Assembly (NCBI RefSeq): GCF_900104515.1
Contig: NZ_FNJL01000033.1
Span: 1-64,000 of the forward strand
Reading direction: 5' to 3'
DNA: 64,000 nucleotides
Origin: Paracidovorax cattleyae
GTDB lineage: Bacteria; Pseudomonadota; Gammaproteobacteria; Burkholderiales; Burkholderiaceae_C
Shown here: positions 37,857 to 59,148 of the stretch, piece by piece
Layout of the letters: every line of letters starts with the position of its first letter
How positions within the stretch are numbered: position 1 is the stretch's first letter
Notes under the pieces: generated by a model
What the model was told of the DNA's origin: nothing
The model's input: only the letters and a program-made list of their open reading frames with translations
Database searches by the model: none
Made by a program: the position numbers and the translations under genes

Positions 37857-37880
37857 AAAAAAAGCCGGGCGGTGCCCGGC
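37857..37880 (-). terminator. Rho-independent terminator of the RiPP minus operon
   Basis: On the minus strand GCCGGGC, loop ACC, GCCCGGC is followed directly by seven T residues. It lies 17 bases past the cyclase stop. It is the clearest intrinsic terminator in the window. Confidence 0.9.
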
Positions 37881-37897
37881 AACCTTGTAGGGGATGT

Positions 37898-39820
37898 TCA
37901 GACGTTGCGTTCGTGCCACGCCAGGAAGCCACCCACCTGCAGGCCGTAGCCCAGCATCTGAAGGTATTCCTCGCGCCGCGGCTCGGCCGCCTGCGCATCG
38001 GACGGCCAACGGTCCATCAACCCCTGCAGGCGGGGCAGGTCGAGCACCCGCCGGGCCAGCGCGGAGCCGTGCAGGGCATCGAGTTGCTGCTGCAGTGCCG
38101 GGCGCTGGGCGGTCAGGCGGGCGAACCAGTCTCCGTGCTGCACGCCCACCTGCCGGTTGGCATGGATCTCCGGCGGCGCGCCGCGCGCGGCCAGCAGGCG
38201 GCGAGGGAGGGAGCGGCTGACGCCGTCGCGCAGGAACTGGTCCAGCGGCAGGCTGCCGAAGAATTCGATGACCCGCCGGTCGGCGAGCGGCATGCGGACA
38301 TCCACGCCGGAAATCGCGCGCAGCGTGCCCCACCCGTCCATGGCCCCGGCATGGCCGGTCAGCCATTCGCGCAGGGCGCGCACCGACCGATGGCGTCCGC
38401 CGAGGCGAAACCGGTAGCGGTCCCGGTCGAGATTCCGCTGCAGGCCGAGTTCATTGGCCAACTGCGGATGCAGTGCCGCGTATTGCGTCCAGAACGCCGC
38501 CGGCAGGCGGTGCCAGCGGCGCAGCACCGCGACGGGTGCGAACGGGCGCAGTACATGGCGTTGAGCGGCTTTGCGAAAAGTCAGGCCCTCGGCCCTCGCG
38601 AGCGAGCGGGTCTGTGCCAGCAGAGTGCGCCACTCGCGGCTGCGCAGCAGTTCCGGCAGGCGGGCCAGGCCGTCGTAGCTGTAGAAGGCATTGCCCATTT
38701 CGCCTCCCATCAGCACGTTCGCCCCGTGCTCGCGCATGAAGCGGTAGAAAGGGAAGAACCAGGCCATGTTCAATGGTGCACGCATCGGCTGGCCGTTTTC
38801 CTGCCACCAGCGCCCGGCGTCATATTCGCCCCAGTCGCCGGCATCGTCGCCTATCGTGTGCCAGTCAACGCCGGGATGGGTGGCGGCCAGCAGGCGCGCG
38901 CGGGGCGACTCGTCGTAGTAATGGGTCTCGCTCGCCGTCGCAGTGGCTGCGCGTGGCACCCGTGTGAGGGTGAGCAGGGGGGCCGGCGCCAGTTGTCTCG
39001 CCGCCGACAGCACCACCGAGCCGCTGTCGAGCCCGCCGGTCAGGCAGGCTGCCATCGGGCCACGGGCTCTCAGCGCATCGCCGACGGCACGGTCCAGCAC
39101 CTCCGCCGCCGCGGCCTCGACATCGGCATCGCTGCCCAGGCGCAGCGACCCCGCTTCGGGCAGCGACCACCATCGCTCGGTGCGCAGAGTATCCGGCGTC
39201 AGATGCATGACATGCCCCGGCAGCACGCGGTCGATGGCCCGATACACCGTGCGGTGCGGCCTGCAGCGGTCCATGATCAACTGGTCGGCGAGCGCCTGTT
39301 CGTCCAGATGCCTGGGAATCTCCGGCAATGCCAGCAACGCCCGCACTCGGGTGGAAAAAGCGATGAGCCGCGCTCCGCGATGGACGAACAGCGAGCACTG
39401 GCCCACGGGGTCGCGCGCCAGCAGCAGCCGCCGCTGGTCCGGCCGGTACAGTGCCAGGGCAAAGGAACCGTGGATTCGCGGCAATGCCGCGGCATCCCAG
39501 CGCTGCAGTGCCTCCAGCAGCAGGCGGCCGTCCGGCCGCGATGGCGGGGATGCGGGTCCCAGCGCGGCGGCAAGCTCACTGCGAGCGGCCAACGTGACAT
39601 CGGCGGACAGAACGGCGCCGGACGCCCCGGTGGCCGGCATTGCCTCGCCCTCGTCCTCCGGCGTGAAGAAGTGCTGGCGGTGCACGATGGCGATGTGGCC
39701 GCCGTGCCAGATGCGCGCGGGGCCTATCCCCCGCGCGTCCAGTGCGTTGCCCAGCCGTTCGATCAGGTCGTCCGGTACGGGCCGACCATCCAGGTGCCAG
39801 ATGCCGGCGAAATCGCTCAT
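37898..39820 (-). CDS. Asparagine-synthetase-like lasso cyclase
   Basis: A 640-residue protein with an N-terminal Ntn-amidotransferase-like half and a C-terminal asparagine-synthetase ATP-pyrophosphatase half. The P-loop is ACLTGGLDSGSVVLSAARQL near residue 260. It begins MSDFAGIWHLDGR and lacks the Cys2 needed for glutamine hydrolysis, which is the known hallmark of lasso peptide cyclases (C proteins) as opposed to true AsnB. These enzymes adenylate an Asp or Glu side chain and close the ring onto the N-terminal amine. It lies 35 bases after a small precursor-like gene and ends at a strong terminator. Confidence 0.85.
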   Translation of the reverse strand: MSDFAGIWHLDGRPVPDDLIERLGNALDARGIGPARIWHGGHIAIVHRQHFFTPEDEGEAMPATGASGAVLSADVTLAARSELAAALGPASPPSRPDGRLLLEALQRWDAAALPRIHGSFALALYRPDQRRLLLARDPVGQCSLFVHRGARLIAFSTRVRALLALPEIPRHLDEQALADQLIMDRCRPHRTVYRAIDRVLPGHVMHLTPDTLRTERWWSLPEAGSLRLGSDADVEAAAAEVLDRAVGDALRARGPMAACLTGGLDSGSVVLSAARQLAPAPLLTLTRVPRAATATASETHYYDESPRARLLAATHPGVDWHTIGDDAGDWGEYDAGRWWQENGQPMRAPLNMAWFFPFYRFMREHGANVLMGGEMGNAFYSYDGLARLPELLRSREWRTLLAQTRSLARAEGLTFRKAAQRHVLRPFAPVAVLRRWHRLPAAFWTQYAALHPQLANELGLQRNLDRDRYRFRLGGRHRSVRALREWLTGHAGAMDGWGTLRAISGVDVRMPLADRRVIEFFGSLPLDQFLRDGVSRSLPRRLLAARGAPPEIHANRQVGVQHGDWFARLTAQRPALQQQLDALHGSALARRVLDLPRLQGLMDRWPSDAQAAEPRREEYLQMLGYGLQVGGFLAWHERNV

Positions 39821-39855
39821 CGGAAATTGGCCCGGCCGCGTCGGATCCGGACCCC

Positions 39856-40011
39856 TCAGGAGCCGGTCGTGGGCCCCCGGCCGTCATCGCCGACGGTGGC
39901 GTTGAGCGCCGTGTCGTCCATCGAAAGGAAAGAGACCACCGGAGTGGTCCAGGCCTTGCGGTCCGTCGGCTGCGAAGGCTCGCCAGGTGCTGTGGATTCG
40001 TGGTCGTTCAT
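39856..40011 (-). CDS. Lasso-peptide-type precursor peptide (candidate)
   Basis: A 51-residue peptide ending SMDDTALNATVGDDGRGPTT then GS, with the leader part TDRKAWTTPVVSFL. WxxPxV stands where lasso leaders have YxxPxL, the RRE-binding motif. Thr at the penultimate leader position would place cleavage before Leu36, giving the core LNATVGDDGRGPTTGS with Asp7 or Asp8 available for a 7- or 8-residue ring. A second Thr sits two residues before Gly41, but that core would have no acid at positions 7-9. The C-terminal Ser matches lasso peptides phosphorylated by HPr-kinase-like enzymes. ATG at 40011 follows AGAGAGG. Confidence 0.75.
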   Translation of the reverse strand: MNDHESTAPGEPSQPTDRKAWTTPVVSFLSMDDTALNATVGDDGRGPTTGS

Positions 40012-40042
40012 GCGGAACCTCTCTGGCTGTCGGATTGCGGGT

Positions 40043-40058
40043 CGCGGCAACTGCCGCG
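40043..40058. promoter_or_regulatory. Perfect inverted repeat in the precursor leader
   Basis: CGCGGCA, AC, TGCCGCG lies between the predicted -10 and the precursor ATG. It may be an operator or an RNA hairpin in the 5' leader. Confidence 0.4.
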
Positions 40059-40068
40059 GGTGTTCCTT

Positions 40069-40074
40069 ATCATA
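40069..40074 (-). promoter_or_regulatory. Candidate -10 box for the precursor gene
   Basis: TATGAT on the minus strand lies in a short AT-rich patch of the GNAT-precursor gap, 58 bases before the ATG. The -35 region is weak, so an activator may be needed. A separate promoter would allow the precursor to be made in excess of the upstream genes. Confidence 0.4.
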
Positions 40075-40111
40075 AATGGCGTGGCCAGGCACGTCCTGGA
40101 CGAGGGAGGGT

Positions 40112-40654
40112 TCAGGGTGCGGCGTGCACTCCAGAAAGGAGCGTGGAAGCCGCGGCCCAGGCCATGTGCCAGCCGATGCCGGTGTCGGCGAGGGGGCAGA
40201 AGCCGAGCCGGCGGTAAAGCCCGGCAGCCGGATTGCCCTTGCCCACTTCCAGCAGCACCCGTCGCCCATCCATCGCCGCCTGGTCCTGCAAAGCCCCGAT
40301 CAGGGCCGTTCCCAGGCCCTGGCCGCGGTATTGTGGCGACAGCAGGATGTCCAGCAGGCCCAGGTCGCCGGCCTCGCTGCGGCCCAGATAGAGCCGGCCC
40401 GCTGTCTGTTCCTGGTGCATCAGCACCAGGAACAGCACCTGCGGATGGGCGCTCGCGTAATGGCGCCGCTGCGCGTCGAACTGCTGGTCGAGCAACGCCG
40501 CCTTCGCCGCATCGTCCCACGGCAGCATGGCGAACTCGGCCCATCGCTGGTGCCGGAACAGCGCGCGCAGCGCCGGCAGGTCCGCCACGCGCTCCTCGTG
40601 CAGCGTGATGCCCCGCGCCAGCAGCGGCGCCGGGCAGGCGAACCGCAGCGGCAT
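40112..40654 (-). CDS. GNAT-family N-acetyltransferase
   Basis: A 180-residue acetyltransferase. The acetyl-CoA site is LDILLSPQYRGQGLGTALIG near residue 100, followed by LLEVGKGNPAAGLYRRLGF, both standard GNAT motifs. Its ATG shares one base with the stop of the upstream collar-protein gene (TGATG), so it is translationally coupled to it. It is the fourth gene of the minus operon that ends in the precursor and cyclase. It might acetylate the peptide, a collar protein, or act in self-protection; none of these is shown by sequence. Confidence 0.88.
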   Translation of the reverse strand: MPLRFACPAPLLARGITLHEERVADLPALRALFRHQRWAEFAMLPWDDAAKAALLDQQFDAQRRHYASAHPQVLFLVLMHQEQTAGRLYLGRSEAGDLGLLDILLSPQYRGQGLGTALIGALQDQAAMDGRRVLLEVGKGNPAAGLYRRLGFCPLADTGIGWHMAWAAASTLLSGVHAAP

Positions 40655-41241
40655 CACGGCCTGGGCGGATAGACGCCGTCGGTGGCGCAGATGCAATAGC
40701 GCAACGTGGTGAACGGCTGCCGGTTCTCATGCGCCTGCGCCGCCGCCGCGGTGGACGGGAACGGCGTCAGCGCGGTGGACTGCAACTGCACGATCGGCGT
40801 CGTGCTGTTCGGCGCATAGGCGCTGTTGGTCGTCGGTGGCGAGGTGGTTGGATCGAGCAAGCGCGACAGGTACGCGTTGCCGCTCGGCGCACTGCCGGAT
40901 GCGCCTGGCGCAGTACCGGGCGGCATGAACTTGCTGGTGATGGTGTGGGTGTGCGCGGGCAACTGCGTCGGCGACACCAGCGCGACGCTGTCCGCCCCCT
41001 GCAGCTGGCCGATCGCATAGCTGCTCAAGCCCGGCCCCTGGCCCTGGCCGACCGCGGCACGGCCACGCAGATCGGGCAGGCCAAAGGTCGTGCGGTTGTC
41101 GCCGCCGTATGTGAATCCGATGACTGCGAAAAGTGCCTGATACTGCTGCAGGCTGACGAGCTGGCCCATGCAGTCGAGCCAGCCTTCCGGAGCGAAGTTG
41201 TAGGGAAACGCGCGGATTTCACCGATGAAGCTATTGGACAT
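40654..41241 (-). CDS. Phage tail collar-domain protein
   Basis: A 195-residue protein with a tail-collar domain at the N terminus: MSNSFIGEIRAFPYNFAPEG, WLDCMGQLVSLQQYQALFAV and TTFGLPDLRGRAAVGQGQG. PAHTHTI near residue 95 and the C-terminal CICATDGVYPPR are also typical of the microcystin-dependent-protein (MdpB)-like family. Such single-domain collar proteins occur outside prophages and their role is unknown. It is third of three paralogues in a row and has an AAAGGAG ribosome site. Sequence between the conserved ends varies among the three. Confidence 0.9.
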   Translation of the reverse strand: MSNSFIGEIRAFPYNFAPEGWLDCMGQLVSLQQYQALFAVIGFTYGGDNRTTFGLPDLRGRAAVGQGQGPGLSSYAIGQLQGADSVALVSPTQLPAHTHTITSKFMPPGTAPGASGSAPSGNAYLSRLLDPTTSPPTTNSAYAPNSTTPIVQLQSTALTPFPSTAAAAQAHENRQPFTTLRYCICATDGVYPPRP

Positions 41242-41265
41242 GTCGAACTCCTTTGCGAAGGCCGA

Positions 41266-41817
41266 TCACGGCCGGTCCGGGAACAATCCGTTCAGGCAGA
41301 TCAGGTAGTTCAGCGTCTGCGTCGCCATGCGGTTGTCGTGCGGCTGGCCGGCCCCGCTCGGGTTCACGGCATTGACTGCCAGGGTATTGACCGCAGGCGT
41401 GCTTCCGCTGGGCGGCGTGAAGTACGGCGCATCGCCGTTCTGTCCGATGGCAGGCAACTGGCCGGCGGGCGTCAGCGCCGTGGCCGGCGTGTTGAGCGCC
41501 TGCAAGGTGTGCCGGTGCGCGGGCATTTCGGCCACCTGCAGGGCCACCGTCTCGGTGCCGAGCCTCTGCCCCAGCACCCGCGCGGTCAATTGCGGCGCCG
41601 GAGCACGAGCCACGCCCTGGCCCTGGCCGATCGCCAGCCTGCCGCGCAGGTCCGGCAGATTGAAGGTGGTTCTCGCATCGCCGCCGTACGTGGTGCCGAT
41701 CAGTGCGTACAGGGCCTGGTAGCTGTTGATCTGCAACTGGCGCCCGTCGCAGAACGCCCAGCCTTCGGGCTCGTAGTTGCCGGCGAACAGGATGATCTGA
41801 CCGGTATAGGCTTCCAT
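41266..41817 (-). CDS. Phage tail collar-domain protein
   Basis: A 183-residue paralogue of its two neighbours: MEAYTGQIILFAGNYEPEGW, AFCDGRQLQINSYQALYALI, TTFNLPDLRGRLAIGQGQG, then PAHRHTL and the end LNYLICLNGLFPDRP. An AGAGGAAC site precedes the ATG. The central part is rich in Thr, Ala, Pro and Asn and has no recognised motif. No other phage structural gene is nearby, so it is not part of a prophage tail module. Confidence 0.9.
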   Translation of the reverse strand: MEAYTGQIILFAGNYEPEGWAFCDGRQLQINSYQALYALIGTTYGGDARTTFNLPDLRGRLAIGQGQGVARAPAPQLTARVLGQRLGTETVALQVAEMPAHRHTLQALNTPATALTPAGQLPAIGQNGDAPYFTPPSGSTPAVNTLAVNAVNPSGAGQPHDNRMATQTLNYLICLNGLFPDRP

Positions 41818-41844
41818 GGTGTCGTTCCTCTTGTAGTCAGACCA

Positions 41845-42384
41845 TCAGGCGCGCTGCGGGTAGAGGCCCACCGTGCAGATGCAGAAATTCAGCACCAGAG
41901 ACGGCTGCATGTTGTTGTGCGTGGCGTTGGCACCTTCCTGGCTCACCGAGTCGGCGGCCAGCCCCACCGCTGGACCGGCTGGCGCATACAGGTTGTGCGG
42001 AGCGGCGGGCTGGGCAGGCAGGACATTGGACGTGGTCACGACTGCGCCGGTGGTTGCCGCAGCACCGACTGCATTCACGGAATGCGAATGGGGTGGCACC
42101 TGCGCCGCCGTCAGCGCGACGCCTTCCAGCCCGCCGTAGTTCCCGACCGCGTAGGTCACCGGCGGCGATGTCAGCGGATTGACACCCTGGCTGACCGGCA
42201 CGCGGCCGCGCAGGTCGGGCAGGTTGAAGTTGGTCTTGCCGTCGCCACCGAACTGGTTGCCCAGCAGCGATGCCAGCGCCTGATTGCCCTGGATCGTCAG
42301 CGTGCGGCCGTCGCACGGCAACCATCCCCTGGGTGTCCAGTCGAACGGAAACAAACGGATTTCGCCAATGTATGCGTCGGACAT
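41845..42384 (-). CDS. Phage tail collar-domain protein
   Basis: A 179-residue collar protein and first gene of the minus operon. MSDAYIGEIRLFPFDWTPRG, WLPCDGRTLTIQGNQALASL, TNFNLPDLRGRVPVSQG and PPHSHSV are the conserved pieces; it ends LNFCICTVGLYPQRA. The ATG at 42384 has a strong GAGGAGGA site; an alternative TTG codon directly upstream is not needed. The shared cysteines near the C terminus of the three paralogues may matter for their assembly. Confidence 0.9.
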   Translation of the reverse strand: MSDAYIGEIRLFPFDWTPRGWLPCDGRTLTIQGNQALASLLGNQFGGDGKTNFNLPDLRGRVPVSQGVNPLTSPPVTYAVGNYGGLEGVALTAAQVPPHSHSVNAVGAAATTGAVVTTSNVLPAQPAAPHNLYAPAGPAVGLAADSVSQEGANATHNNMQPSLVLNFCICTVGLYPQRA

Positions 42385-42722
42385 CAAGTTCCTCCTCGGA
42401 TGCGAACATCACCGCCCGGGATGCCACGATCGCGGCCGCCCGGACCCCTCCAAATCTCCTGGCTGCGCATGCGTCGCACTGCGCGCCGGACGCCATGCTA
42501 CATGGGGTCCGTGCCACCGGGGCCCAGGTTTACACCGACGTGGGCACTCGCGCAGGGCCGGACCGGGCGCCGTGGCTCGATCGGTATCGGCTGCGACGCA
42601 TTCCGTATCATCGGCCCCACGACCGCCGCCGGACTCCCGATGCCAAACCTGTCGCGCCATCTTTCTGTGACCACCCGGCATGTCCCGTGCTTCGCCGGAT
42701 GCCGCCGCGCGGCCACGCGGCC
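42385..42722. other. Divergent intergenic region of the RiPP cluster
   Basis: About 340 bases between the collar operon and the methyltransferase gene. No gene is recognised. It should contain the promoters of both arms; a TATCAT hexamer at about 42605 (plus strand) is one weak -10 candidate. No strong inverted repeat was seen. Confidence 0.5.
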
Positions 42723-43466
42723 ATGAGCCCGCCCGGGCGACCCTGGCGCCGACTGCAGGCAATGACCGGCCTGCGCCTGCTGTACCGTGCCTTGCGCAGC
42801 CGCGAAGGACGCGGCTATGCGTGGCTGCGAATCACCTCGCCCGAGCCGCTCTTCCAGGACTACGGCACCACGTCCGCAGACCGCTATCCAAGCCTCTTCG
42901 GGTTCGTCCAGGAATCCTTGTCCGGCACTGCGGCCCCCCGGCTGCTGTCGTTCGGCTGCTCGACCGGGGAGGAAGCCGCAAGCCTGCGCCGGTACTTCCC
43001 GGACGGGCTGATCACCGGACTGGACATCCATCCGGGCCATATCGCCACCTGCTGCCAGCGGCTCCGCACCCGGCCCGACCCCGGCATGCGGTTCCGCGTG
43101 GCGGGCAGCACGGCCGCGGAGGCGGACGCCGCCTACGACGCCGTCTTCTGCCTTGCGGTGCTGCGCCGGGGTGACCTGGCCCGGCACACTGGCGAGCGCT
43201 GTGACCATCTCATCCGTTTCGAGGATTTCGATGCGCAACTGGAGGATTTCGCGCGCTGCCTGCGGCCCGGTGGACTGCTGGTGCTGCGCCATTCCAATTT
43301 CCGACTCCGCGATGCAGGTGCCGCCCGCTGGTTCGAGCCGGTCCTGCGCATGCCGGAGGCGCCGCGCGCGGACACACCGCTGTTCGGGCCGGACAACCGG
43401 CGGCTGCGGGAGCAGGCCTACGGCGAAGTCGTGTTTCGACGCCTCGCCTGCCCCCTGGGCGGCTGA
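42723..43466 (+). CDS. Class I SAM-dependent methyltransferase
   Basis: A 247-residue methyltransferase-type Rossmann protein (a start eight codons earlier, at 42699, is also possible). The SAM site reads LLSFGCSTGEEAASLRRYFP near residue 70, with ITGLDIHPGHI as the acidic loop and AVFCLAVLRRGDLA as motif IV. It is the first gene of the plus arm, divergent from the collar operon, and 90 bases upstream of the PqqD gene. Its substrate is unknown; modification of the peptide or of a collar protein are possibilities. Confidence 0.8.
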   Translation: MSPPGRPWRRLQAMTGLRLLYRALRSREGRGYAWLRITSPEPLFQDYGTTSADRYPSLFGFVQESLSGTAAPRLLSFGCSTGEEAASLRRYFPDGLITGLDIHPGHIATCCQRLRTRPDPGMRFRVAGSTAAEADAAYDAVFCLAVLRRGDLARHTGERCDHLIRFEDFDAQLEDFARCLRPGGLLVLRHSNFRLRDAGAARWFEPVLRMPEAPRADTPLFGPDNRRLREQAYGEVVFRRLACPLGG

Positions 43467-43556
43467 CGTTCGAGGCGATCGCCGCCGCGCGCGCCGCGCG
43501 TCGATAGAATTCCTCAACGACGCTCCCTGGGCGATGTCCCCCCTTCCCGAAGAAAG

Positions 43557-43847
43557 ATGCAGTGGATGAACGTTGAACCGGATGCCCTGATCGCCCGTGC
43601 GCCCGATTGCCTTGCCGCAGACATGGGCGAAGAGCTGGTCATCATGATCGCCGGGCGCGGCACTTATCTGGCGCTGGATTCGGTCGGTCGTGACGTCTGG
43701 TCGTGCATCGCCCTGCCCTGTTCGTTCCCGGCGCTGTGCGACTGCCTGGAGGGAATCTACGCGGGCGCCAGGGCCGCCATCGAGGCCGACGTGGCAGCGC
43801 TGCTCGGCAAGCTGCAGGAAGCTGGCGCGGTGGAGATCCGCCGGTGA
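43557..43847 (+). CDS. PqqD-family RRE protein (lasso B1-like)
   Basis: A 96-residue PqqD-like winged-helix protein. GRGTYLALDSVGRDVWSCIA near residue 33 and DVAALLGKLQEAGAVEIR at the end are the family hallmarks. In RiPP systems this RRE domain binds the leader peptide and presents it to the B2 protease. Its stop overlaps the GTG of the HPr-kinase-like gene by four bases. ATG 43566 is an alternative start. Its likely partner is the WTTPVV leader of the peptide at 39856-40011. Confidence 0.9.
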   Translation: MQWMNVEPDALIARAPDCLAADMGEELVIMIAGRGTYLALDSVGRDVWSCIALPCSFPALCDCLEGIYAGARAAIEADVAALLGKLQEAGAVEIRR

Positions 43848-44752
43848 GTCTCCACCATTACCAGTTGTGCGGATGGCACGTCCGCAGCGGCATCGCGCTG
43901 CCGGAGCTGCCGCCATGGCCCGGAGCCCTGGAAGCGCCGGAGGATATCTCCATCGAGGAAGGGCCGGTCCCGGACCGGCTCGATGCCTGCATGCAGGAAC
44001 CCTCCTGGCTGGAGGTGGGCGGGGATGGCACGGTCCTCATGCAGATCCCGGACCTGGTGCGCATCCACGTCCAGGGCGGGCGAAACATCCGCGTGCAGCG
44101 GTTGCGTCCGGACGATGCGGGCTGGCGCCTGTTCCTCCTTGGATCGGCACTGGCCTATCTGTGCCTGCAGCGCGGACTCTTCCCGCTGCATGCCGCCTGC
44201 TTGCGCATGGGGACGCGAACGCTGGCCATCGCGGGCCACGGTGGTGCCGGCAAGTCGACGCTGGCGGCTGTGCTGCTGCGACGGGGGCATGGCCTGCTCG
44301 GGGACGACCTCGCCGTGCTGGATGTGGCCGGCGGCGGTGGCCGTATCGAGGTACTTCCGGCATTCCCACGCCTCAAGCTCTGGCGCGAAGCCATGGATGC
44401 GCTGCGGATTCCGGGCGAAGGTGCGCCGCGGGTGCGCGAGGGGATGGACAAGTACGATCTGCGGCCGCAAGCGGGCTTCGATCCCGCTCCTGCGCCGCTC
44501 TGCGCCGTGCTGGTGCTGCGGGAAGGATCCGAAGTGGCTCTGCAGCGGCTTTCGCCTGCCGCCGCCGTGCCCGCCCTCCATGGGCACCTCGCGAGGCCTC
44601 GAGTGGCTGCGCGCATGGGCCTGCGGGATGCCCTTTTCGGCCAGGCCGCGTCCATCGGTCGCGTGGTGCCGGTCTGGACGCTGCAGCGTCCGCGCAGCTT
44701 CGATGCACTGGACGCCACGGCGGATCTGGTCGAGGCGCACTTCCGTACATGA
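43844..44752 (+). CDS. HPr-kinase-like peptide kinase
   Basis: A 302-residue P-loop protein. After a beta-rich N-terminal part, Walker A reads AIAGHGGAGKSTLAAVLLRR near residue 125 and the acidic Walker B is GLLGDDLAVLDV, as in HPr serine kinase/phosphorylase-like proteins of RiPP clusters. Such kinases are known to phosphorylate the C-terminal serine of paeninodin-type lasso precursors. The candidate precursor here ends in Ser. GTG 43844 overlaps the PqqD stop (GTGA), and the stop overlaps the sulfotransferase ATG, so the three are coupled. Confidence 0.82.
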   Translation: MSLHHYQLCGWHVRSGIALPELPPWPGALEAPEDISIEEGPVPDRLDACMQEPSWLEVGGDGTVLMQIPDLVRIHVQGGRNIRVQRLRPDDAGWRLFLLGSALAYLCLQRGLFPLHAACLRMGTRTLAIAGHGGAGKSTLAAVLLRRGHGLLGDDLAVLDVAGGGGRIEVLPAFPRLKLWREAMDALRIPGEGAPRVREGMDKYDLRPQAGFDPAPAPLCAVLVLREGSEVALQRLSPAAAVPALHGHLARPRVAARMGLRDALFGQAASIGRVVPVWTLQRPRSFDALDATADLVEAHFRT

Positions 44753-45600
44753 CGCGCCGCGGCATCTTCTGGATCGCTTCGTATCCCAAGTCCGGCAATA
44801 CCTGGGTCCGGTGCCTGATCGCCAGCCTGCAGTCCGGCGGTGCGCCCGTGCGGCTGGGCGGGCTGGGCGATACCGTGCCCAACTCCGCCGCGCGCGCCTG
44901 GATCGAGGCATGCATCGATGTGGGCAGCGGGGACATGCTGGCGTCCGAATTGAATGCGATGCGCGCCCAGTCCCACCGTGAGGAGGGCGCGCGGCGCCTT
45001 TGCATTCTCAAGGTGCACGATCGTTACGACCCGGGGCTGTTCCCTGCAGAGGTGACCCTTGGGACGATCCACATCGTGCGCGACCCCCGCGACGTGGCGC
45101 CCTCCTGGGCAGACCACATGGGGGTGGACGTGGACACGGCCATTGCCCGCATGGCGGACGATGCACTGACCCTGAGCCGCAGCATTGACTCTTTCCGGCC
45201 CCAGGCACCCCAGCGGTTCGGGTCGTGGTCCGGGCACGTGCGTTCCTGGCTGGACGATGCGCCGGGTCCCCGGCTGCTGCTGCGCTACGAAGCGCTGCTG
45301 GCCGATCCGCTGGGTGAAGCCGCGCGGCTTTCTCGCTTCATGGGTCTGTCGGTGGATGCGGATTGCGTGGCCCGCGCCGTGGATGCCTGCGATTTCGAGG
45401 CCTTGCGCGGCATCGAGGAGCGCGAGGGGTTCTCCGAGCGCCAAAAGGGGCAGCGGCGGTTTTTCCGGCAGGGCCGCTCCGGCGCATGGCGCGGCGTGCT
45501 GCAACCTGATCAGGCAGGACGGATCATGGGGGACCACGGGGCCATGATGCGGAGGCTGGGCTACGGTGCGGACACGTTGGCGGATCCTGTGCAGGCGTGA
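44749..45600 (+). CDS. Sulfotransferase-domain protein
   Basis: A 283-residue PAPS-dependent sulfotransferase. The 5'-phosphosulfate loop is IASYPKSGNTWVRCLIASLQ at the N terminus and the 3'-phosphate site is IVRDPRDVAPSWADHM near residue 108. The late segment EREGFSERQKGQRRFFRQG with RSGAWR is the usual C-terminal PAPS contact. It overlaps the kinase gene by four bases. A sulfotransferase is not a standard lasso gene, so sulfation of the peptide (Thr, Ser) or of a coupled polysaccharide is an open option. Confidence 0.9.
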   Translation: MTRRGIFWIASYPKSGNTWVRCLIASLQSGGAPVRLGGLGDTVPNSAARAWIEACIDVGSGDMLASELNAMRAQSHREEGARRLCILKVHDRYDPGLFPAEVTLGTIHIVRDPRDVAPSWADHMGVDVDTAIARMADDALTLSRSIDSFRPQAPQRFGSWSGHVRSWLDDAPGPRLLLRYEALLADPLGEAARLSRFMGLSVDADCVARAVDACDFEALRGIEEREGFSERQKGQRRFFRQGRSGAWRGVLQPDQAGRIMGDHGAMMRRLGYGADTLADPVQA

Positions 45601-46085
45601 AGCGCGAAGCACCCCTTGCTGAACCTCTGCCGACGCGAGCGATCCTGCAGGCCGGCCTGCGCCGTGGAGAGTGCAAGCCGATTCCACTGTCCCTCATGGT
45701 CTCTGCATTGCTCTGCTGTGGGGTGCCGTTATGCTGGCCCCGATGCGCGGGGTCCTGCAGGCAGCGCGCACTGCCGAGTCATCCTTGGAGGAGGGGAAGA
45801 AATCAAAACCGTTCGTTTGCCAGACAGGTCGGCACCGAGTGCGCCCAGGGCCGCCGCGGGGCCGGTGGGTGGTTGCCTTGCGGGCGGGCTGCGGCCAGAC
45901 TTGCCCAGGGAGCTTCCAGCCCCCGGACGGCCGGGTGGACGGGAGTGAGCCCGGTGAGGGCTACGTCGAGCCGCGGCGCTTCCGGCGACCATGTCAGCTG
46001 GTCTCCTGCATTCGCATGCATTCTTCGCATGTGGCAGGGAGAGGCTTGCAATGACCGTTGTCACGGCATCGAGGAGGAGGCTTTC
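45601..46085. other. 485-base gap inside the RiPP plus arm
   Basis: In a locus where most other genes overlap, this gap stands out. It has a possible promoter (TTGCTC and TATGCT about 16 bases apart near 45,710-45,740) and a GGAGGAGGGG purine tract near 45,790 that resembles a ribosome site but is followed by ATC rather than a start codon. No precursor-like peptide or known riboswitch was recognised. Confidence 0.45.
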
Positions 46086-47141
46086 ATGCACGCGCTGGCG
46101 CGGCACCGGATGGCGCTGGCGCTGCCCTCCGCGGGCCGGCTCGATGCTCTCCTGCCGTCGAAGCTATGCAGGGCATTGCGTGAACGCCAGCGCAGCATGG
46201 CCCTGCGCGCGCTGCAGCACACTGCGGCTGTGCGCGGCATCGTTGATGCGCTGCGGGGGGCCGGCATCCGGTTCTGCCTGGTCAAGGGCCAGGGGTATGC
46301 AGCGCTTTTCGGCGATCCCCTGCGCCGCGAGGCGAGCGACATCGACGTGCTGGTCGATCCGGAGAGCGTCGCCCGGGCACTGCCGCCGCTGCAGGCCATC
46401 GGCTACCTGCCCGACTCCGCGGCGGTGGCGGACCTGGACCGCTACGGCATCCACCACCATGACCTGCCGCTGCGCCATGCCGCCACGGGGGTGGTGGTGG
46501 AACTGCACCTGCGGCTCGCCAACCGGCGAAGCCAGTTCCGCCTGGAAGGGGCGGCGCTCTGGGAGCGGCATGTCACCACGGTGAGGCTGGGCGGAACCGA
46601 GGTTCTCACGCTGGCGCCACCTGCCGCCGTGGCCTATGCCGCATTCCATGGCACCAAGCACCACTGGCACCGTGCCTTCTGGCTGGTGGACATGGCCCTG
46701 GCGTTGCGCAGTACCACGCTGGACTGGGACGCCACGCTCGCGCTGGCCCGGCAGTTGGGCGTCGAGCGTTCCCTGGCGATGGCCGCGTTGCTCGTGGAGG
46801 CCACGCTGGGCGTGGAGGTGCCTGCCGTGCTGCGCGGGCAGCCCGCGTTGCTGCACGCGGCCCGTCCCGCGGCCGATGCGCTGCTGCCGCACCTGGATGC
46901 GCTGGGCTCCGACCGCGGCGCGGAACTGGCGGCGAGGATGGGCGGTATTGGCTACCTGCGTTGGCTGGTGTCGCTGCAGTCGGGCTGGCGCGGGCGCCTG
47001 CGGCTGGTCGCTGTCCTGCTGGCCCCCACCGACGATGATCGCGCCGCGCTGGCCCTGCCCAGCCCGCTGGAGTGGGCCTATCCGGTGGTGCGGGCCTTGC
47101 GGCTGGCCGCGCGCCACCTCGCCAGGCGCCGGCGCGTCTGA
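46086..47141 (+). CDS. Nucleotidyltransferase-fold protein of lasso-cluster type
   Basis: A 351-residue protein of the nucleotidyltransferase family common in RiPP clusters. CLVKGQGYAALFGDPLRREA then SDIDVLVDP near residue 80 carries the DxD metal site, and HDLPLRHAATGVVVELHLRL holds the third carboxylate. In the pseudomycoidin-type lasso clusters such an enzyme modifies the phosphorylated C terminus. The ATG at 46086 has a GAGGAGGAGG site. It follows a long gap and is 127 bases upstream of the B2 gene. Confidence 0.85.
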   Translation: MHALARHRMALALPSAGRLDALLPSKLCRALRERQRSMALRALQHTAAVRGIVDALRGAGIRFCLVKGQGYAALFGDPLRREASDIDVLVDPESVARALPPLQAIGYLPDSAAVADLDRYGIHHHDLPLRHAATGVVVELHLRLANRRSQFRLEGAALWERHVTTVRLGGTEVLTLAPPAAVAYAAFHGTKHHWHRAFWLVDMALALRSTTLDWDATLALARQLGVERSLAMAALLVEATLGVEVPAVLRGQPALLHAARPAADALLPHLDALGSDRGAELAARMGGIGYLRWLVSLQSGWRGRLRLVAVLLAPTDDDRAALALPSPLEWAYPVVRALRLAARHLARRRRV

Positions 47142-47268
47142 CGGTGCGAGGCCACCTGGATGCAGCGTCTTTCTCCTGCGTTGTGCGAGCCCGCCGTATC
47201 CGCTGTAATGCGTGGCATTCCCTGCGTGGCGGCGTGCCGCCTGCATTCTTCCGAACGGATGTCCCTGC

Positions 47269-47745
47269 GTGTCTGATGTGCTGCCCCTGAGGCGCCTGCG
47301 TGCGTTCCTGCGCCTTCCGCGTTTCGAGCGCTGCCTGTTCTTCCCGGCCTGGCTGCTGCTGGGGCTTGCGCGGGTGGCCGTCCTCTGCCTGGGGTTCCGG
47401 CGGCTCGCACCCTGGCTGGGGCGCGCGGTCGCCGAGACGCCGTCCCTGCCCCCCCTGGAGCAGCGCGGATGGAGGCGCGCACAGCAAATCGGCCGCACAT
47501 TGCGCCTGGCCGCGCGGCACACGCCCTGGCAGTCGAACTGCCTGGCCCAGGCGCTGGCGGCGCGCTGTCTGCTCGGAGTGTTCGGGATTCCCCATGCGGT
47601 GTGTTTCGGTGTGGCGCGCTTGGACGCGTCGCAACTGCAGGCGCATGCCTGGGTCGTCGCAGGGCAGGGTTTCGTGACCGGTGGCGTCGGCGCGCAGCGC
47701 TTCACCTGCACGGGATGCTTCGTCGTCGGTGCGGAGGGCGCGTGA
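47269..47745 (+). CDS. Lasso peptide B2-type transglutaminase-like protease
   Basis: A 158-residue transglutaminase-like cysteine protease. The catalytic Cys is in TPWQSNCLAQALAARCLLG near residue 84 and the His is in LQAHAWVVAGQGFVTGG, the arrangement of lasso B2 proteins that cut the leader. The N-terminal hydrophobic stretch RCLFFPAWLLLGLARVAVLC may bind the membrane. Start is GTG at 47269. Its stop overlaps the GTG of the ABC exporter gene, so protease and exporter are made together. Confidence 0.9.
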   Translation: MSDVLPLRRLRAFLRLPRFERCLFFPAWLLLGLARVAVLCLGFRRLAPWLGRAVAETPSLPPLEQRGWRRAQQIGRTLRLAARHTPWQSNCLAQALAARCLLGVFGIPHAVCFGVARLDASQLQAHAWVVAGQGFVTGGVGAQRFTCTGCFVVGAEGA

Positions 47746-49496
47746 CGGGACCTTGGAAGGCATTGGCACGGCTCCTGGCCTGGGCGCCGGCGCGCTGGCG
47801 CGTGGCGTTGTTCCTGCTGATGCTGGTGGCAGGCGCCACCGAGGGCATCGGCGTGCTGTTGCTCGTGCCCCTGCTGGGGATGTTGCAGGGTGATTCCGTG
47901 GCGGCATCGGGCGCCGCCGCGCGGGGCGTCGTCCAGGCCGGGGCATCGCTGGGCCTGCCCTCGGGGGCGCCGCTGCCGTTGCTGGCACTGTTCTGTGCGC
48001 TGATCCTGCTGCGCAACGCGATCCAGTATGCACGGGAGTGCGCCGCTGCGCGGTTGCAGCAACAGGTGGCGGATCGGCTGCGCGAGGCCAGCTTCTCGGC
48101 ACTGCTCGGTGCGCAGTGGCGCTGGGTGGTCGCGCAGCGCACGGCGGAGCAGGCGAACCTCCTGCTCAGCGACGTCGCGCGCATCGGCATCGGCCTGGGC
48201 CACGGCATGGGCATGCTGGCGTCTCTGGCCACCGCTGCGGTATATCTGCTTGCCGCGTTCGCGCTGCACTGGAGGCTGGCGCTCGCCAGCGCCCTGGGTG
48301 GCGCGCTGCTGCTGGCCCTGCTGGCAGGGCACCGGCGCGGGGTGATGGCCCTGGGGCGGCAGCTCACCGTGGCGAGCCAGCGTCTGCACGCCAGCCTGCA
48401 CGGCAGCCTGGCCGGATTGCGTCTGGCCAAGATCCTGGGCGCAGAGGAGCGTTACCGGGCCTGGGTCGCGGGCGACGCGGGCCGGCTGCGCGACCAGCAA
48501 CTGCGTTTCGCCACGGGGCTGAGCCTGTCGAAGGCCCTGCTGCACAGCGCCGGCGCGCTGCTGCTGGCGACCTATGTCTACCTGGGGCTGCGGGTGTGGG
48601 CCGTGCCGGTTGCCGAGCTGCTCACGCTGGTGCTGGTGTTCGCCCGCCTCCTGCCATTGCTGGCGACGGGTCACCAGCAACTGCAGATGTGGCTGCATGC
48701 GGCGCCAGCCTTCGCCGGGGTGGAGCGCCAGCTGGCCGAGGCCCGCGCCTGGGCCGAACCGGAAGGGGGCGCCCAGCAGGCGGTGCCCGCCGCACGGACA
48801 GCGATAGCCCTGCGCGGCGTCGTAGTGCGCTACGAAGGCCGTGAGGTCCGGACGCTGGACGATGTCTCGCTGACGTTGCCTGTACGGACGACCACCGCCA
48901 TCGTCGGCGCCTCCGGTGCCGGCAAGAGTACCCTGGCCGACGTGCTGTGCGGATTGCTGGGCCCGGACGGGGGCGCGCTGGAAGTCGATGGCGTGCCGCT
49001 GGACGCCCGTGAACGCCGTGCCTGGCGGCGTGCCGTCGCCTATGTGTCGCAGGACACTTTCCTGTTCAACGACAGCGTGCGCAGCAATCTGCTGCTGGCC
49101 GCGCCCGATGCCGATGACGAAGCATTGCGACGCGCCCTGGAACAGGCCTGTGCGCAGTTCGTGCATGCCCTGCCGCAGGGGTGGGACACGGTGGTGGGGG
49201 AGCGCGGCGCGCAGCTGTCCGGCGGCGAGCGGCAGCGCATCGCGCTGGCGCGCGCGCTGCTGCAGCGACCGGCGCTGCTGATCCTCGACGAGGCCACCAG
49301 CGCGCTGGACCACGACAACGAAGCGCGCGTACGCGAAGCCATCGAGCGGCTACATGGCGACTTGACCGTGGTCGTCATCGGCCATCGGATCGCCCTGCTG
49401 GAGCAGGCCGACCGTGTCGTGCTGCTGGAGCGGGGACGCATCCGCGTGCAGGGGCGGTGGGATGAGGTGGCACCGCACTGGATGGGTGCGCGGTGA
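47742..49496 (+). CDS. ABC exporter, fused membrane and ATPase domains (lasso D-like)
   Basis: A 584-residue half-transporter. Six membrane helices fill residues 15-300. The ATPase follows, with Walker A GASGAGKSTLADVL near residue 387, signature QLSGGERQRIALARALL, Walker B LLILDEATSAL and switch histidine in VVIGHRIALL. No N-terminal C39 peptidase is fused, consistent with a separate B2 protease. It begins with GTG 47742 overlapping the B2 stop. It would export the mature peptide and give immunity; a polysaccharide role is a less likely alternative. Confidence 0.92.
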   Translation: MTGPWKALARLLAWAPARWRVALFLLMLVAGATEGIGVLLLVPLLGMLQGDSVAASGAAARGVVQAGASLGLPSGAPLPLLALFCALILLRNAIQYARECAAARLQQQVADRLREASFSALLGAQWRWVVAQRTAEQANLLLSDVARIGIGLGHGMGMLASLATAAVYLLAAFALHWRLALASALGGALLLALLAGHRRGVMALGRQLTVASQRLHASLHGSLAGLRLAKILGAEERYRAWVAGDAGRLRDQQLRFATGLSLSKALLHSAGALLLATYVYLGLRVWAVPVAELLTLVLVFARLLPLLATGHQQLQMWLHAAPAFAGVERQLAEARAWAEPEGGAQQAVPAARTAIALRGVVVRYEGREVRTLDDVSLTLPVRTTTAIVGASGAGKSTLADVLCGLLGPDGGALEVDGVPLDARERRAWRRAVAYVSQDTFLFNDSVRSNLLLAAPDADDEALRRALEQACAQFVHALPQGWDTVVGERGAQLSGGERQRIALARALLQRPALLILDEATSALDHDNEARVREAIERLHGDLTVVVIGHRIALLEQADRVVLLERGRIRVQGRWDEVAPHWMGAR

Positions 49497-49951
49497 GCAT
49501 GCCGGACAGGATGCGCGCATGGCGCCGGCTGCTTCCTGCGCACCGGCATGCAGGCGCGTGCGCGCTGTCGGCACAGTGGTTGTCCGTTGTCTTCGTTGCG
49601 GCCGTGTCCCTGGCACTGTCGGTATGGCCGGCCCGGTGCATGGAGCCGTCGGGGTTCGGCCGCTATGCCTATCTGCTGAACCTGGCGACGCTGCTGGCGC
49701 TGGTGCGGGATGCCGGCCTGCGCACCCTCGTGATGCGCGAACGCGTGGCGTGCTGCCGCCCCATTGGCGCTGTTCTTTTTTTCGGCGCCTGCGGCTCGCC
49801 CGCCCGCATGCCGTCACCGCGCAGCGGCCGTACGCCAGGACGTCGCCGGCCGCCGTCGGGGTGGGTTCGGGTCTTGCCGTGGCTGGCTGGCCTGCTGTCC
49901 GGAGCGGCATACCGCGCAGTGGGGGAGGGCTGGCGGCCCGCAGTTTCCTGA
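49493..49951 (+). pseudogene. Truncated oligosaccharide flippase-like fragment
   Basis: The first half of this 152-codon frame fits the N terminus of a Wzx-type flippase: membrane helix WLSVVFVAAVSLALSVWPAR, then GFGRYAYLLNLATLLALVRD and AGLRTLVMRER. After about residue 84 the sequence turns into Arg/Pro-rich nonsense and stops. Other frames downstream also give no good continuation. GTG 49493 overlaps the exporter stop. It looks like the stub left by a deletion or frameshift; a functional flippase is encoded at 52294-53640. Confidence 0.6.
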
Positions 49952-50090: not shown

Positions 50091-51344
50091 ATGAACGACG
50101 TGCGTGAGCGAAGCGGCGATGTGTCGCTGGGTGATCTGCTGCTGGAGCTGCTGCGCTTCTATCGCGACTTCGGTTTGCTGCTGGTGCCGGTAGCGCTGGT
50201 GGCTGCACTGGTGGCTGGTGGGCTGGCCCTGCGCTACCCGCTCTACGGCGCCACCGCGCTGCTGGAGACGCCTCAGATGTCGCTGGACCAGTGGCGCAGG
50301 CTGCTGCCCATGCTGTCGGACCGCCAGCTGGTGGCGGCCACGCTGGCCGATGCCTCCCTGCCCGACGGCGCGGCTCCCCGGCTGCAAAGGCCGTTCCAGC
50401 AGCCGCGCTACTGGAGCACGCGGGTGGGCTACCGCAGCACGGTGGGGCGGGACGATATCCGGGAGCAGATCAACATCGATCCCAAGAAAATCGGGGCACT
50501 GGGGCTGGAGGTTTCGCTCAATGTGCGCGACGAAGCCGCTGCGGCGCAGCAGTTCGCCGTGATCGCATCGCACATCCGCCAGGTCATGCTCTGGGGTGAC
50601 CTGCGTGAATACCTGGACCGGCTGCGGCAGGAGGTGCTGGAACAGCGCTCGCAGCTGCAGATCGAGCAGATCCGGCGGCAGTTCGCCATCGAGCAGGGCC
50701 AGAAGCAGGTGGAGGACATGCACCGGCTGCTGCAGCAGTATCCGGAACTGCGCCGCAGCGAAGTGAACACGGTGGTGTCGGTGGGCGATGGCGGTGGGCG
50801 GTACCTGTCGCCGCTGGCCCAGATCGTGGCGCTGGAATCCACTATGTCCGATACCCGATCGCAGCTGCGCAAGGGGGTGCGTGAACTCGAGCAGCTGCAG
50901 TGGAAGCAGCGCTTCCTGGATCGCGTCGATGCGCGCCTGGATGGGCTGGCCTCGGGCAAGGAACTGGCCCGCTGGATGGAGCAGTGCCTGGCCGGCCTGT
51001 TCCCTGCCGATACCGCAGAGAACACGGCGCAGCGGCAGGCCGGCAGCGAGATCCGGATGAACCTGGAGCAGTCGCTCTCCAGGGCCGGTCAGCTGCGCTA
51101 CAAGGCTTTGCCGGCGCTGCCGGTTGCACCGCTGCCATCGCGGCGCCATTCCTTCGTCGCCGCGGCGGTATTCGCCGGCACGCTCCTGGCGCTGTCCATG
51201 GCATTGGGAAGCTATGTGGCACTGCGCCGTGCGGGCGGGGCGCCGGGGACCTGGTCCGCCCGCCAGGATCCGCTCTTCGCCTGGCTGCCGGAGCGCCTGC
51301 GGCGCAGGCTGCCGGCGGGCGGGGCCGAGGGAGGCCGCGCGTGA
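50091..51344 (+). CDS. Wzz/chain-length-determinant-like protein
   Basis: A 417-residue inner-membrane protein. One helix lies near residues 28-49 (LLLVPVALVAALVAGGLAL) and a second near 358-380 (SFVAAAVFAGTLLALSMALG), with a long periplasmic part between. Residues about 175-220 form a likely coiled coil (DLREYLDRLRQEVLEQRSQL). This is the topology of Wzz and GNVR polysaccharide co-polymerases. It lacks a fused tyrosine kinase. It couples by GTGA overlap to the epimerase gene downstream. Confidence 0.82.
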   Translation: MNDVRERSGDVSLGDLLLELLRFYRDFGLLLVPVALVAALVAGGLALRYPLYGATALLETPQMSLDQWRRLLPMLSDRQLVAATLADASLPDGAAPRLQRPFQQPRYWSTRVGYRSTVGRDDIREQINIDPKKIGALGLEVSLNVRDEAAAAQQFAVIASHIRQVMLWGDLREYLDRLRQEVLEQRSQLQIEQIRRQFAIEQGQKQVEDMHRLLQQYPELRRSEVNTVVSVGDGGGRYLSPLAQIVALESTMSDTRSQLRKGVRELEQLQWKQRFLDRVDARLDGLASGKELARWMEQCLAGLFPADTAENTAQRQAGSEIRMNLEQSLSRAGQLRYKALPALPVAPLPSRRHSFVAAAVFAGTLLALSMALGSYVALRRAGGAPGTWSARQDPLFAWLPERLRRRLPAGGAEGGRA

Positions 51345-59143: not shown

Positions 59144-59148
59144 ACCGG

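What the first reader, a model, noticed from the sequence alone, without database searches (positions are those of the whole stretch)
37857..49496. Divergent lasso-peptide-type RiPP cluster with its own precursor
The sequence shows all parts of a lasso system: a 51-residue peptide with a WxxPxV leader and Thr before a possible LNATVGDDGRGPTTGS core, a cyclase without Cys2, a PqqD/RRE protein, a B2 transglutaminase-like protease and an ABC exporter. The parts are split between two opposed operons. Known lasso biology requires exactly these functions. The predicted ring (Leu1 to Asp7 or Asp8) is inferred.
Basis: partly seen in the sequence, partly recalled or inferred. Interest (0 to 1): 0.88.

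Follow-up and report, generated by a model that had tools for sequence, protein, structure and literature searches.

The report
Lasso peptide cluster tied to polysaccharide
A bacterium of the Acidovorax group carries a full set of genes for a knotted ("lasso") peptide whose last amino acid is probably phosphorylated and decorated, and the set is inherited together with genes for a surface sugar polymer, which gives a way to ask what such peptides are for.

Summary
All named parts are present: 51-aa precursor (39856-40011, -), cyclase without Cys2, PqqD/RRE protein B1, B2 peptidase, ABC exporter. Thirteen orthologous precursors from Acidovorax/Paracidovorax and Xanthomonas keep W-15, P-12, T-2, Asp8 and C-terminal Ser16, while position 7 varies (D/N/I). 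The ring is therefore Leu1-Asp8 rather than Asp7, and the core is LNATVGDDGRGPTTGS. The cyclase groups with lasso cyclases, away from AsnB (100/100 support).

The + strand also encodes an HprK-type kinase, a sulfotransferase, a nucleotidyltransferase and a methyltransferase, and with the invariant C-terminal Ser this makes it a kinase-type (paeninodin/pseudomycoidin-like) cluster. It leads directly into a polysaccharide operon (epimerase, AsnB, glycosyltransferases, WcaJ). That operon's marker gene occurs in 8 of 8 cyclase-bearing and 0 of 27 other Xanthomonas genomes, and in 4 of 5 and 0 of 12 genomes of the window's genus.

Best reading: a C-terminally phosphorylated, probably further decorated lasso peptide working with a surface polysaccharide. 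Enzyme roles rest on homology; threading and function are untested. Kinase-type lasso clusters in capsule loci are published for Bacilli; this is a distinct proteobacterial variant.

The parts
37898..39820 (-). C: lasso macrolactam cyclase, 640 aa, Ser2 in place of Cys2, PP-loop motif TGGLDS
   Evidence: Pfam Asn_synthase 114 bits; NF033535 213 bits against TIGR01536 121 bits, both under their cut-offs; tree; motif
39856..40011 (-). A: 51-aa precursor; leader 39907-40011, core LNATVGDDGRGPTTGS 39859-39906
   Evidence: 13 orthologues including itself; single match in its genome
40112..40696 (-). GNAT acetyltransferase upstream of A on the same strand
   Evidence: Pfam Acetyltransf_1 42.5 bits; also in the G013, Xanthomonas and Azospirillum loci, not in G002, G005, G006
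40654..41241 (-). Phage-tail-collar protein 1 (Mdp-like)
   Evidence: Pfam Collar 92.9 bits
41266..41817 (-). Phage-tail-collar protein 2
   Evidence: Homologous to protein 1
41845..42387 (-). Phage-tail-collar protein 3
   Evidence: Homologous to protein 1
42747..43466 (+). SAM methyltransferase
   Evidence: Pfam Methyltransf_12 39.9 bits; also in both Azospirillum loci at 39 and 47% identity; not in G002 or G013
43557..43847 (+). B1: discrete RRE (PqqD-like) chaperone
   Evidence: Pfam PqqD 43 bits; NF033536 39.8 bits, cut-off 80; PDB TbiB1 E=4e-4
43844..44752 (+). K: HprK-related kinase, GTG start overlapping the B1 stop
   Evidence: Hpr_kinase_C 21.6 bits, cut-off 33.3; TIGR04352 35 bits, cut-off 200; H116, K137, D154, D155 invariant in 7 rows; AlphaFold model matches PEPCK and HprK structures
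44749..45600 (+). S: sulfotransferase, overlaps K by 4 nt
   Evidence: Pfam Sulfotransfer_1 81.9 bits; PKSGNTW read directly (motif recalled)
46086..47141 (+). N: nucleotidyltransferase (NTP_transf_5)
   Evidence: Pfam PF14907 155.8 bits, cut-off 31.2
47212..47745 (+). B2: transglutaminase-like leader peptidase, with Cys and His shared by 15 of 15 B2 rows
   Evidence: NF033537 81.7 bits, cut-off 33; alignment
47742..49496 (+). D: ABC exporter, overlaps B2 by 4 nt
   Evidence: Pfam ABC_tran 117.8 bits; junctions
49493..49951 (+). Short flippase-like gene, 152 aa, overlaps the end of D by 4 nt; probably a remnant
   Evidence: Polysacc_synt 20.1 bits, cut-off 28.2; junctions; D-to-Wzz-like spacing 0.6 kb here, 1.3-1.4 kb in X. 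floridensis and P. oryzae
50094..51344 (+). Wzz-like membrane protein, name from reading only; co-inheritance marker
   Evidence: No Pfam or NCBIfam hit; distribution
51344..52297 (+). Sugar-nucleotide epimerase/dehydratase
   Evidence: Pfam Epimerase 145 bits
53693..55534 (+). Ordinary AsnB-type amidotransferase (MCGIV) of the polysaccharide operon, not the lasso cyclase
   Evidence: TIGR01536 347 bits, cut-off 267
59143..61001 (+). Glycosyltransferases (GT4 59143-60222, WecG/TagA 60219-61001)
   Evidence: Pfam 101 and 200 bits
60998..62296 (+). Wzy/O-antigen-ligase-like polymerase
   Evidence: Pfam Wzy_C 58 bits
63021..63998 (-). WcaJ: undecaprenyl-phosphate glucose phosphotransferase (runs off the window)
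   Evidence: TIGR03023 423 bits, cut-off 410.75

Best explanation
A kinase-type lasso peptide pathway, made and inherited together with a surface polysaccharide operon. B1 binds the WTTPVV leader motif of A. [quoted passage not shown] N probably adds a sugar or nucleotide to that phosphate, and S and the methyltransferase may add further groups. B2 cuts after Ala-1, one residue behind the invariant Thr-2. C joins the Leu1 amine to Asp8, giving an 8-residue ring with an 8-residue Gly/Ser/Thr-rich tail, and D exports the product. The lasso genes lead into a polysaccharide operon, so the decorated peptide most likely acts at, or together with, that surface polymer. Shown here by sequence: the parts, the conserved precursor residues, the cyclase grouping, the likely kinase fold and the co-inheritance. 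Inferred from homology: each enzyme step. Inferred only: threading and any role with the polymer.
For: Family hits for C, B1, S, N, B2, D and K. 13 of 13 close precursors have W-15, P-12, T-2, Asp8 and Ser16. K homologues lie in 16 of 16 lasso loci compared. Cyclase tree. Four-base overlaps B1-K-S and B2-D-flippase-like gene. Marker of the polysaccharide operon in 8 of 8 cyclase-positive and 0 of 27 cyclase-negative Xanthomonas genomes, and in 4 of 5 and 0 of 12 of the window's genus; Fisher p 4e-8 and 0.002, not corrected for shared descent. Genes kept through to WcaJ in Xanthomonas genome G084. Known chemistry: kinases act on the C-terminal Ser of linear precursors, including proteobacterial SyanK, and PsmN adds hexose to the phosphate (passages of PMC8498205, PMC9266682).
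Against: Scores of C, B1 and K stay under the curated cut-offs of the closest NCBIfam models, so they are divergent. The kinase model is one good prediction of five (pLDDT 80.7, the others 60.5-70.6) and its matches have modest TM-scores, at most 0.59 in the rows shown. G013 has A, C, B1, K and S at one locus without B2, D, N, methyltransferase or the polysaccharide marker. Away from the close clade the polysaccharide link is patchy: with a small glycosyltransferase panel, 4 of 14 distant loci had a hit within 10 kb of the cyclase, against 1 of 40 control stretches from two genomes; by that measure the window itself scores none. Three of nine candidate precursors from distant loci do not end in Ser. 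4 of 13 close tails have none of F, W, Y, H, R, K, L, I, M, Q, E, so a classical steric plug is doubtful.
Confidence: 0.82

Rival explanations
1. The product is a branched-cyclic (unthreaded) macrolactam rather than a lasso: same enzymes and same ring, but the short flexible tail is not held in the ring.
For: Tails are 8 residues and Gly/Ser/Thr-rich; 4 of 13 have no large residue. The candidate core of the G013 second cluster leaves only 5 tail residues if its ring has 8.
Against: The cyclase lies among lasso cyclases, and lasso cyclases are thought to thread before closing (recalled). 9 of 13 tails carry R, L or F, and a C-terminal phosphate or sugar could act as a stopper.
Confidence: 0.25
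2. The lasso genes and the polysaccharide operon are merely hitch-hiking neighbours on one horizontally moved island, with no joint function.
For: Distribution is patchy (8 of 35 Xanthomonas, 5 of 17 in the window's genus); gene order is shuffled between genera; G013 has lasso genes without the marker; the link is weak in distant relatives.
Against: The cyclase never occurs without the polysaccharide marker in 8 of 8 Xanthomonas; the exporter overlaps a flippase-like gene by 4 nt; kinase-type clusters are independently reported inside capsule loci of Bacilli (PMC13381572, section 6).
Confidence: 0.4
3. The AsnB-like enzyme and its neighbours modify the polysaccharide (PEP-CTERM/XrtA-like amidotransferase with HprK/PqqD proteins) and the 51-aa ORF is incidental.
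For: HprK-related kinases, PqqD-like proteins and amidotransferases also occur in exopolysaccharide systems (recalled; TIGR03108 97.7 bits on the cyclase).
Against: NF033535 scores 213 against 98 for TIGR03108; the operon has its own separate AsnB; the tree separates them 100/100; 13 of 13 precursors are conserved beside the cyclase.
Confidence: 0.03

Closest known systems
Paeninodin-type lasso peptides (Paenibacillus/Bacilli; pseudomycoidin with PsmK and PsmN)
   Same: WxxP leader, C-terminal Ser, HprK-like kinase, nucleotidyltransferase, B1/B2 split, ABC exporter, location in polysaccharide loci (PMC13381572 sections 6, 9 and 12; PMC8498205 and PMC9266682 passages). A putative sulfotransferase is also reported in some Firmicutes clusters.
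   Different: Host is in Pseudomonadota; the cyclase lies outside the two paeninodin-type rows, in a group of 14 proteobacterial rows (99/99); ring of 8 with mostly Asn at position 1; a methyltransferase, GNAT and collar proteins are present.
SyanA/SyanK of Sphingobium yanoikuyae
   Same: Proteobacterial kinase acting on the C-terminal Ser of a lasso precursor (PMC8498205, PMC9266682 passages)
   Different: Its sequence was not fetched, so not compared here; no polysaccharide link described in the passages seen.
Linear polyphosphorylated peptides (LPP)
   Same: RRE, HprK-like kinase, NTP transferase, MsbA-like exporter; often in capsule loci (PMC13381572)
   Different: LPP clusters lack the cyclase and use a signal-peptidase-like leader peptidase; here both C and B2 are present.
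Lasso clusters of ruminal Firmicutes
   Same: HPr kinase, nucleotidyltransferase, PqqD and glycosyltransferase genes co-occur with lasso genes (PMC7533575 abstract and passages)
   Different: Other phylum; not compared by sequence here.
Xanthomonins
   Same: Lasso peptides of Xanthomonas
   Different: Seven-residue ring (title seen in a reference list); here the conserved acid is Asp8 and the cluster is kinase-type.

Membership tests
Lasso peptide biosynthesis | Precursor with [Y/W]xxPx[L/V/I/A/F/Y] leader motif and penultimate leader Thr | tested here: met
   WTTPVV and Thr-2; W, P and Thr in 13 of 13 orthologues. Motif as given in PMC13381572; penultimate Thr from the start of the abstract of PMC10368454 in a listing
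Lasso peptide biosynthesis | Macrolactam cyclase of the lasso type, apart from AsnB | tested here: met
   Tree of 23 rows, 100/100 split; NF033535 is best by score but under its cut-off
Lasso peptide biosynthesis | RRE (B1) and leader peptidase (B2) | tested here: met
   conserved Cys and His in 15 of 15 B2 rows. B1 passes Pfam PqqD but not the NCBIfam lasso PqqD cut-off
Lasso peptide biosynthesis | Asp/Glu at core position 7-9 | tested here: met
   Asp8 in 13 of 13
Lasso peptide biosynthesis | Threaded macrolactam product | not testable with these tools
   Needs mass spectrometry and NMR or ion mobility
Kinase-type (paeninodin-like) lasso peptides | C-terminal Ser on the precursor | tested here: met
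   13 of 13 close orthologues
Kinase-type (paeninodin-like) lasso peptides | HprK-like kinase with His-Lys-Asp-Asp residues | tested here: met
   fold match to PEPCK/HprK. Motif named in PMC9266682; that H116, K137, D154 and D155 are those four residues is my assignment
Kinase-type (paeninodin-like) lasso peptides | Phosphate found on the C-terminal Ser | not testable with these tools
   No chemistry available
Paeninodin family in the narrow sense (Bacillota clade) | Cyclase inside the paeninodin clade | tested here: not met
   Only two paeninodin-type rows were available; they pair (100/100) apart from the window's group. B1, on which PMC13381572 bases its clade, was not treed here
LPP | No macrolactam cyclase | tested here: not met
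   C and B2 present; a signal-peptidase-like protein was not searched for
Xanthomonins | Seven-residue ring | tested here: not met
   Position 7 varies D/N/I and Asp8 is invariant; ring size inferred, not measured

The most novel reading that the evidence does not exclude
The peptide is a building part of the surface polymer: after K and N have phosphorylated and glycosylated Ser16, the C-terminal phospho-sugar links the lasso to the polysaccharide made by the adjoining operon, and this bulky end also serves as the stopper that the Gly/Ser/Thr-rich tail lacks. It would be a lasso-decorated exopolysaccharide.
Probability: 0.1. Interest if true: 0.88.

Novelty: new variant of a known kind. Interest (0 to 1): 0.56.

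Why it matters
The 2026 paper on paeninodins and LPPs (PMC13381572, Discussion) says their roles are unknown and calls a part in biofilm formation tempting speculation. This locus extends kinase-type WxxP lasso clusters to Acidovorax-group and Xanthomonas bacteria and shows strict co-inheritance with one defined polysaccharide operon in the 35 Xanthomonas genomes searched. Gene removals there could test directly whether such peptides act with the polymer. It also fixes the predicted ring (Asp8) and gives exact masses to look for.

Tried and rejected
AsnB/primary metabolism for the cyclase: rejected by the tree. Asp7 ring: rejected because position 7 varies. An exclusive lasso role for the three collar proteins: not supported. 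A homologue of the third occurs in 19 of 369 class genomes; of 13 such loci outside the window's genome that I fetched (from 18 other genomes with a match), one (G310) also had a kinase, cyclase, B1 and exporter, and no precursor was recognised there. Still, collar and GNAT genes lie in three lineages of lasso-kinase loci (window/Xanthomonas clade, Azospirillum, G310). Missing B2 triad Asp as an anomaly: dropped, since the paeninodin-type rows look the same. A simple scan found no sigma-70-like promoter between 39.7 and 43.7 kb. Class-wide search for the cyclase found it in 3 of 369 genomes; it scored few candidates per genome and missed the weaker one in G310. Pattern scans for precursors also gave hits that I set aside as chance by eye.

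Literature: searches are all my paper searches. Among the titles and abstract starts listed I saw no paper on this cluster in Acidovorax or Xanthomonas; one search listed 15 of 71 papers, 10 of 22, 10 of 11. Passages of PMC9062649 and PMC11639067 concern xanthomonins and other bacteriocins. The library is open-licence only, and the JBC paeninodin paper is not held.

Own error, corrected: until I read K from base 43846 (wrong frame) and two glycosyltransferase queries (GT4, WecG) out of frame. Void for that reason: the K results, the window K, GT4 and WecG rows, and the window K seed of the HMM (its motif list comes from ORFs and stands). K was rerun in the right frame from then on, and all queries.
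Full report
WHAT IS THERE. The window is contig C84 of a 5.6-Mb genome. On the minus strand lie the cyclase C (37898-39820), the precursor A (39856-40011), a GNAT acetyltransferase and three phage-tail-collar proteins. On the plus strand lie a methyltransferase, B1, kinase K, sulfotransferase S, nucleotidyltransferase N, B2 and exporter D. B1-K-S and B2-D overlap by 4 nt, and D overlaps the next, short flippase-like gene by 4 nt; S to N is a gap of 485 nt. A polysaccharide operon follows: a Wzz-like and a flippase-like protein (both named by reading only; no hits), epimerase, a genuine AsnB (347 bits, cut-off 267), methyltransferase, GT4, WecG and Wzy_C and WcaJ (423 bits, cut-off 410.75).

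THE PRECURSOR IS REAL. The cyclase search gave a close homologue in 5 of 17 genomes of the genus, the window's own included, and in 8 of 35 Xanthomonas genomes (the genus name rests on four named members). All 13 loci have a 51-aa ORF beside the cyclase. Invariant in 13 of 13: W-15, P-12, V-10, S-9, F-8, L-7, D-4, T-2, G6, D8, G9, G11, S16. Position 7 is D, N or I. Two of the 13 peptides are identical. Mean pS/pN over 78 pairs is 0.62/0.10 in the 15-residue leader motif and 0.51/0.28 in the core, the usual pattern of a fixed leader and a varying core. P. oryzae and X. prunicola share the core NQTFSGNDGTGTGTGS with 7 synonymous and no non-synonymous codon differences, so the core itself is under selection.

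THE CYCLASE. It scores 213 bits on the lasso cyclase model and 121 on asparagine synthase, both under the cut-offs. A cyclase from Paenibacillus cellulosilyticus, whose locus I call paeninodin-type from its precursor and genes, also stays under the lasso cut-off (335 of 525). In a 23-row tree the five AsnB rows form one group (100/100). The window cyclase falls with the other 17 lasso-side rows, including Priestia (its locus is annotated 'paeninodin family lasso peptide') and the archaeon Halopiger (annotated B2). It lies in a group of 14 proteobacterial rows (99/99) next to the paeninodin-type pair; Antarctobacter, also proteobacterial, falls outside both. Three rows (Priestia, P. cellulosilyticus, Halopiger) have an unusual letter make-up.

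KINASE-TYPE TAILORING. K has the His, Walker-A Lys and Asp-Asp residues. It scores 21.6 bits on Hpr_kinase_C (cut-off 33.3) and 35 bits on HprK-related kinase A (cut-off 200). Its best AlphaFold model has pLDDT 80.7 with seven aligned sequences; the other four models have 60.5-70.6. Of the 50 PDB rows shown, 49 are PEP carboxykinases or HPr kinases, with E from 2e-6 to 5e-4 and modest TM-scores. K homologues are in 16 of 16 lasso loci compared. In the looser set, three further loci (G161, G025, G101) had a K hit and two (G245, G114) had none; Priestia, Halopiger and Antarctobacter were not scanned for K. In the distant loci I picked nine candidate precursors from pattern scans and annotated small ORFs: eight have WxxP and one YxxP, and six end in Ser. 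The three that do not are from Azospirillum TSH100, Tistrella pTM1 and G101. N is PF14907 (156 bits) and S is Sulfotransfer_1 (82 bits). Published work: such kinases phosphorylate the C-terminal Ser of the linear precursor, and PsmN puts hexose on that phosphate, though a nucleotidyl intermediate was not excluded (passages of PMC8498205 and PMC9266682). The reaction of S in lasso clusters is not given in the passages I read.

CO-INHERITANCE WITH A POLYSACCHARIDE OPERON. The Wzz-like gene is found in exactly the 8 of 35 Xanthomonas genomes that hold the cyclase and in 0 of the 27 others. In the window's genus it is in 4 of the 5 genomes with the cyclase and in 0 of the 12 others; the exception, G013, keeps A, C, B1, K, S, GNAT and collar genes but lacks the marker, and within the 40 kb fetched lacks B2, D, N and the methyltransferase, though it has a second, divergent cluster elsewhere with B2 and D. 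Fisher p is 4e-8 and 0.002; related genomes are not independent, so these overstate the evidence. In 5 of 5 Xanthomonas loci the order is A-C-B2-D-flippase-like-Wzz-like-epimerase on one strand, and G084, the one fetched far enough, keeps the genes through to WcaJ. Outside this clade the link is uneven. Azospirillum TSH100, A. oryzae and Antarctobacter clusters lie among annotated glycosyltransferase genes. A uniform panel gave 4 of 14 distant loci against 1 of 40 control stretches (p 0.013, test); the controls come from two genomes only, several loci are shorter than 20 kb, part of the panel comes from loci of the same set (own hits left out), and the panel, run 10 kb either side of the cyclase, also misses the window's own operon.

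MECHANISM. B1 holds the WTTPVV leader, K phosphorylates Ser16, N (and perhaps S and the methyltransferase) decorates, B2 cuts after Ala-1, C closes Leu1 to Asp8, and D exports. Each step follows from homology, not from experiment. Four of 13 tails have no residue of F, W, Y, H, R, K, L, I, M, Q or E. Either the ring is not threaded, or the C-terminal modification is the stopper.

COMPARED WITH WHAT IS KNOWN. A 2026 paper (PMC13381572; sections 4, 6, 9 and 12 read) reports paeninodin-like clusters often near capsule loci of Bacilli, W as the nearly invariant first motif residue in paeninodin-like precursors, calls paeninodins restricted to Bacillota, and leaves their roles unknown. Ruminal Firmicutes lasso clusters also sit with kinase and glycosyltransferase genes (PMC7533575 passages). 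The window cluster has the same traits in Proteobacteria, but its cyclase is outside the paeninodin pair, so I file it as a separate proteobacterial variant. Proteobacterial kinase clusters as such are already known (SyanK). My paper searches listed none on this cluster in Acidovorax or Xanthomonas; the lists were partly capped and the library is open-licence only.

VERDICT. The finding is real, and the lasso reading is right as far as it goes. The interest lies in the tailoring set and the tight link to one polysaccharide operon.

Noticed in passing
window 40112-42387 (-); L045 19119-21458; L046 11799-14031; L165 9.1-10.3 kb: Phage-tail-collar proteins (three in the window and in Azospirillum, one hit in G310) with a GNAT acetyltransferase recur within lasso-kinase clusters at different positions, but also stand alone in other genomes, two of the fetched ones also with a homologue of a small Azospirillum gene (DUF6916-like, label recalled).
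   Followed up: partly
window 49493-49951 (+): The flippase-like gene between D and the Wzz-like gene is only 152 codons and probably a remnant; in G002 the tblastn search found no trace of it. The relatives' copies were not read in full.
   Followed up: partly
window 57817-59140 (+): A polymerase-like gene (name from reading) lies in two successive frames (57817-58599, 58613-59140), so it looks split in this genome; not examined further.
   Followed up: no
L004/L011 (P. oryzae) and L012/L090 (X. prunicola) precursors: Identical 16-residue cores in two distant genera despite 7 synonymous codon differences.
   Followed up: yes
L022-L023 (G013:C53, about 179-190 kb): Second, divergent kinase-type lasso cluster with a YxxP precursor whose predicted tail has only 5 residues.
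   Followed up: partly
L113 (Halopiger xanaduensis plasmid): Archaeal lasso locus with PqqD, B2, cyclase, nucleotidyltransferase and a flippase gene close by.
   Followed up: no
L045 12.8-24 kb, L046 7.9-20 kb (Azospirillum plasmids), L044 10.9-13.1 kb (Tistrella): Related clusters carry oxygenase-type genes hinting at hydroxylated products: 2OG-Fe(II) oxygenase and cupin genes in both Azospirillum, an aspartyl/asparaginyl hydroxylase-like gene in TSH100, and homologues of the cupin and hydroxylase genes in Tistrella.
   Followed up: no
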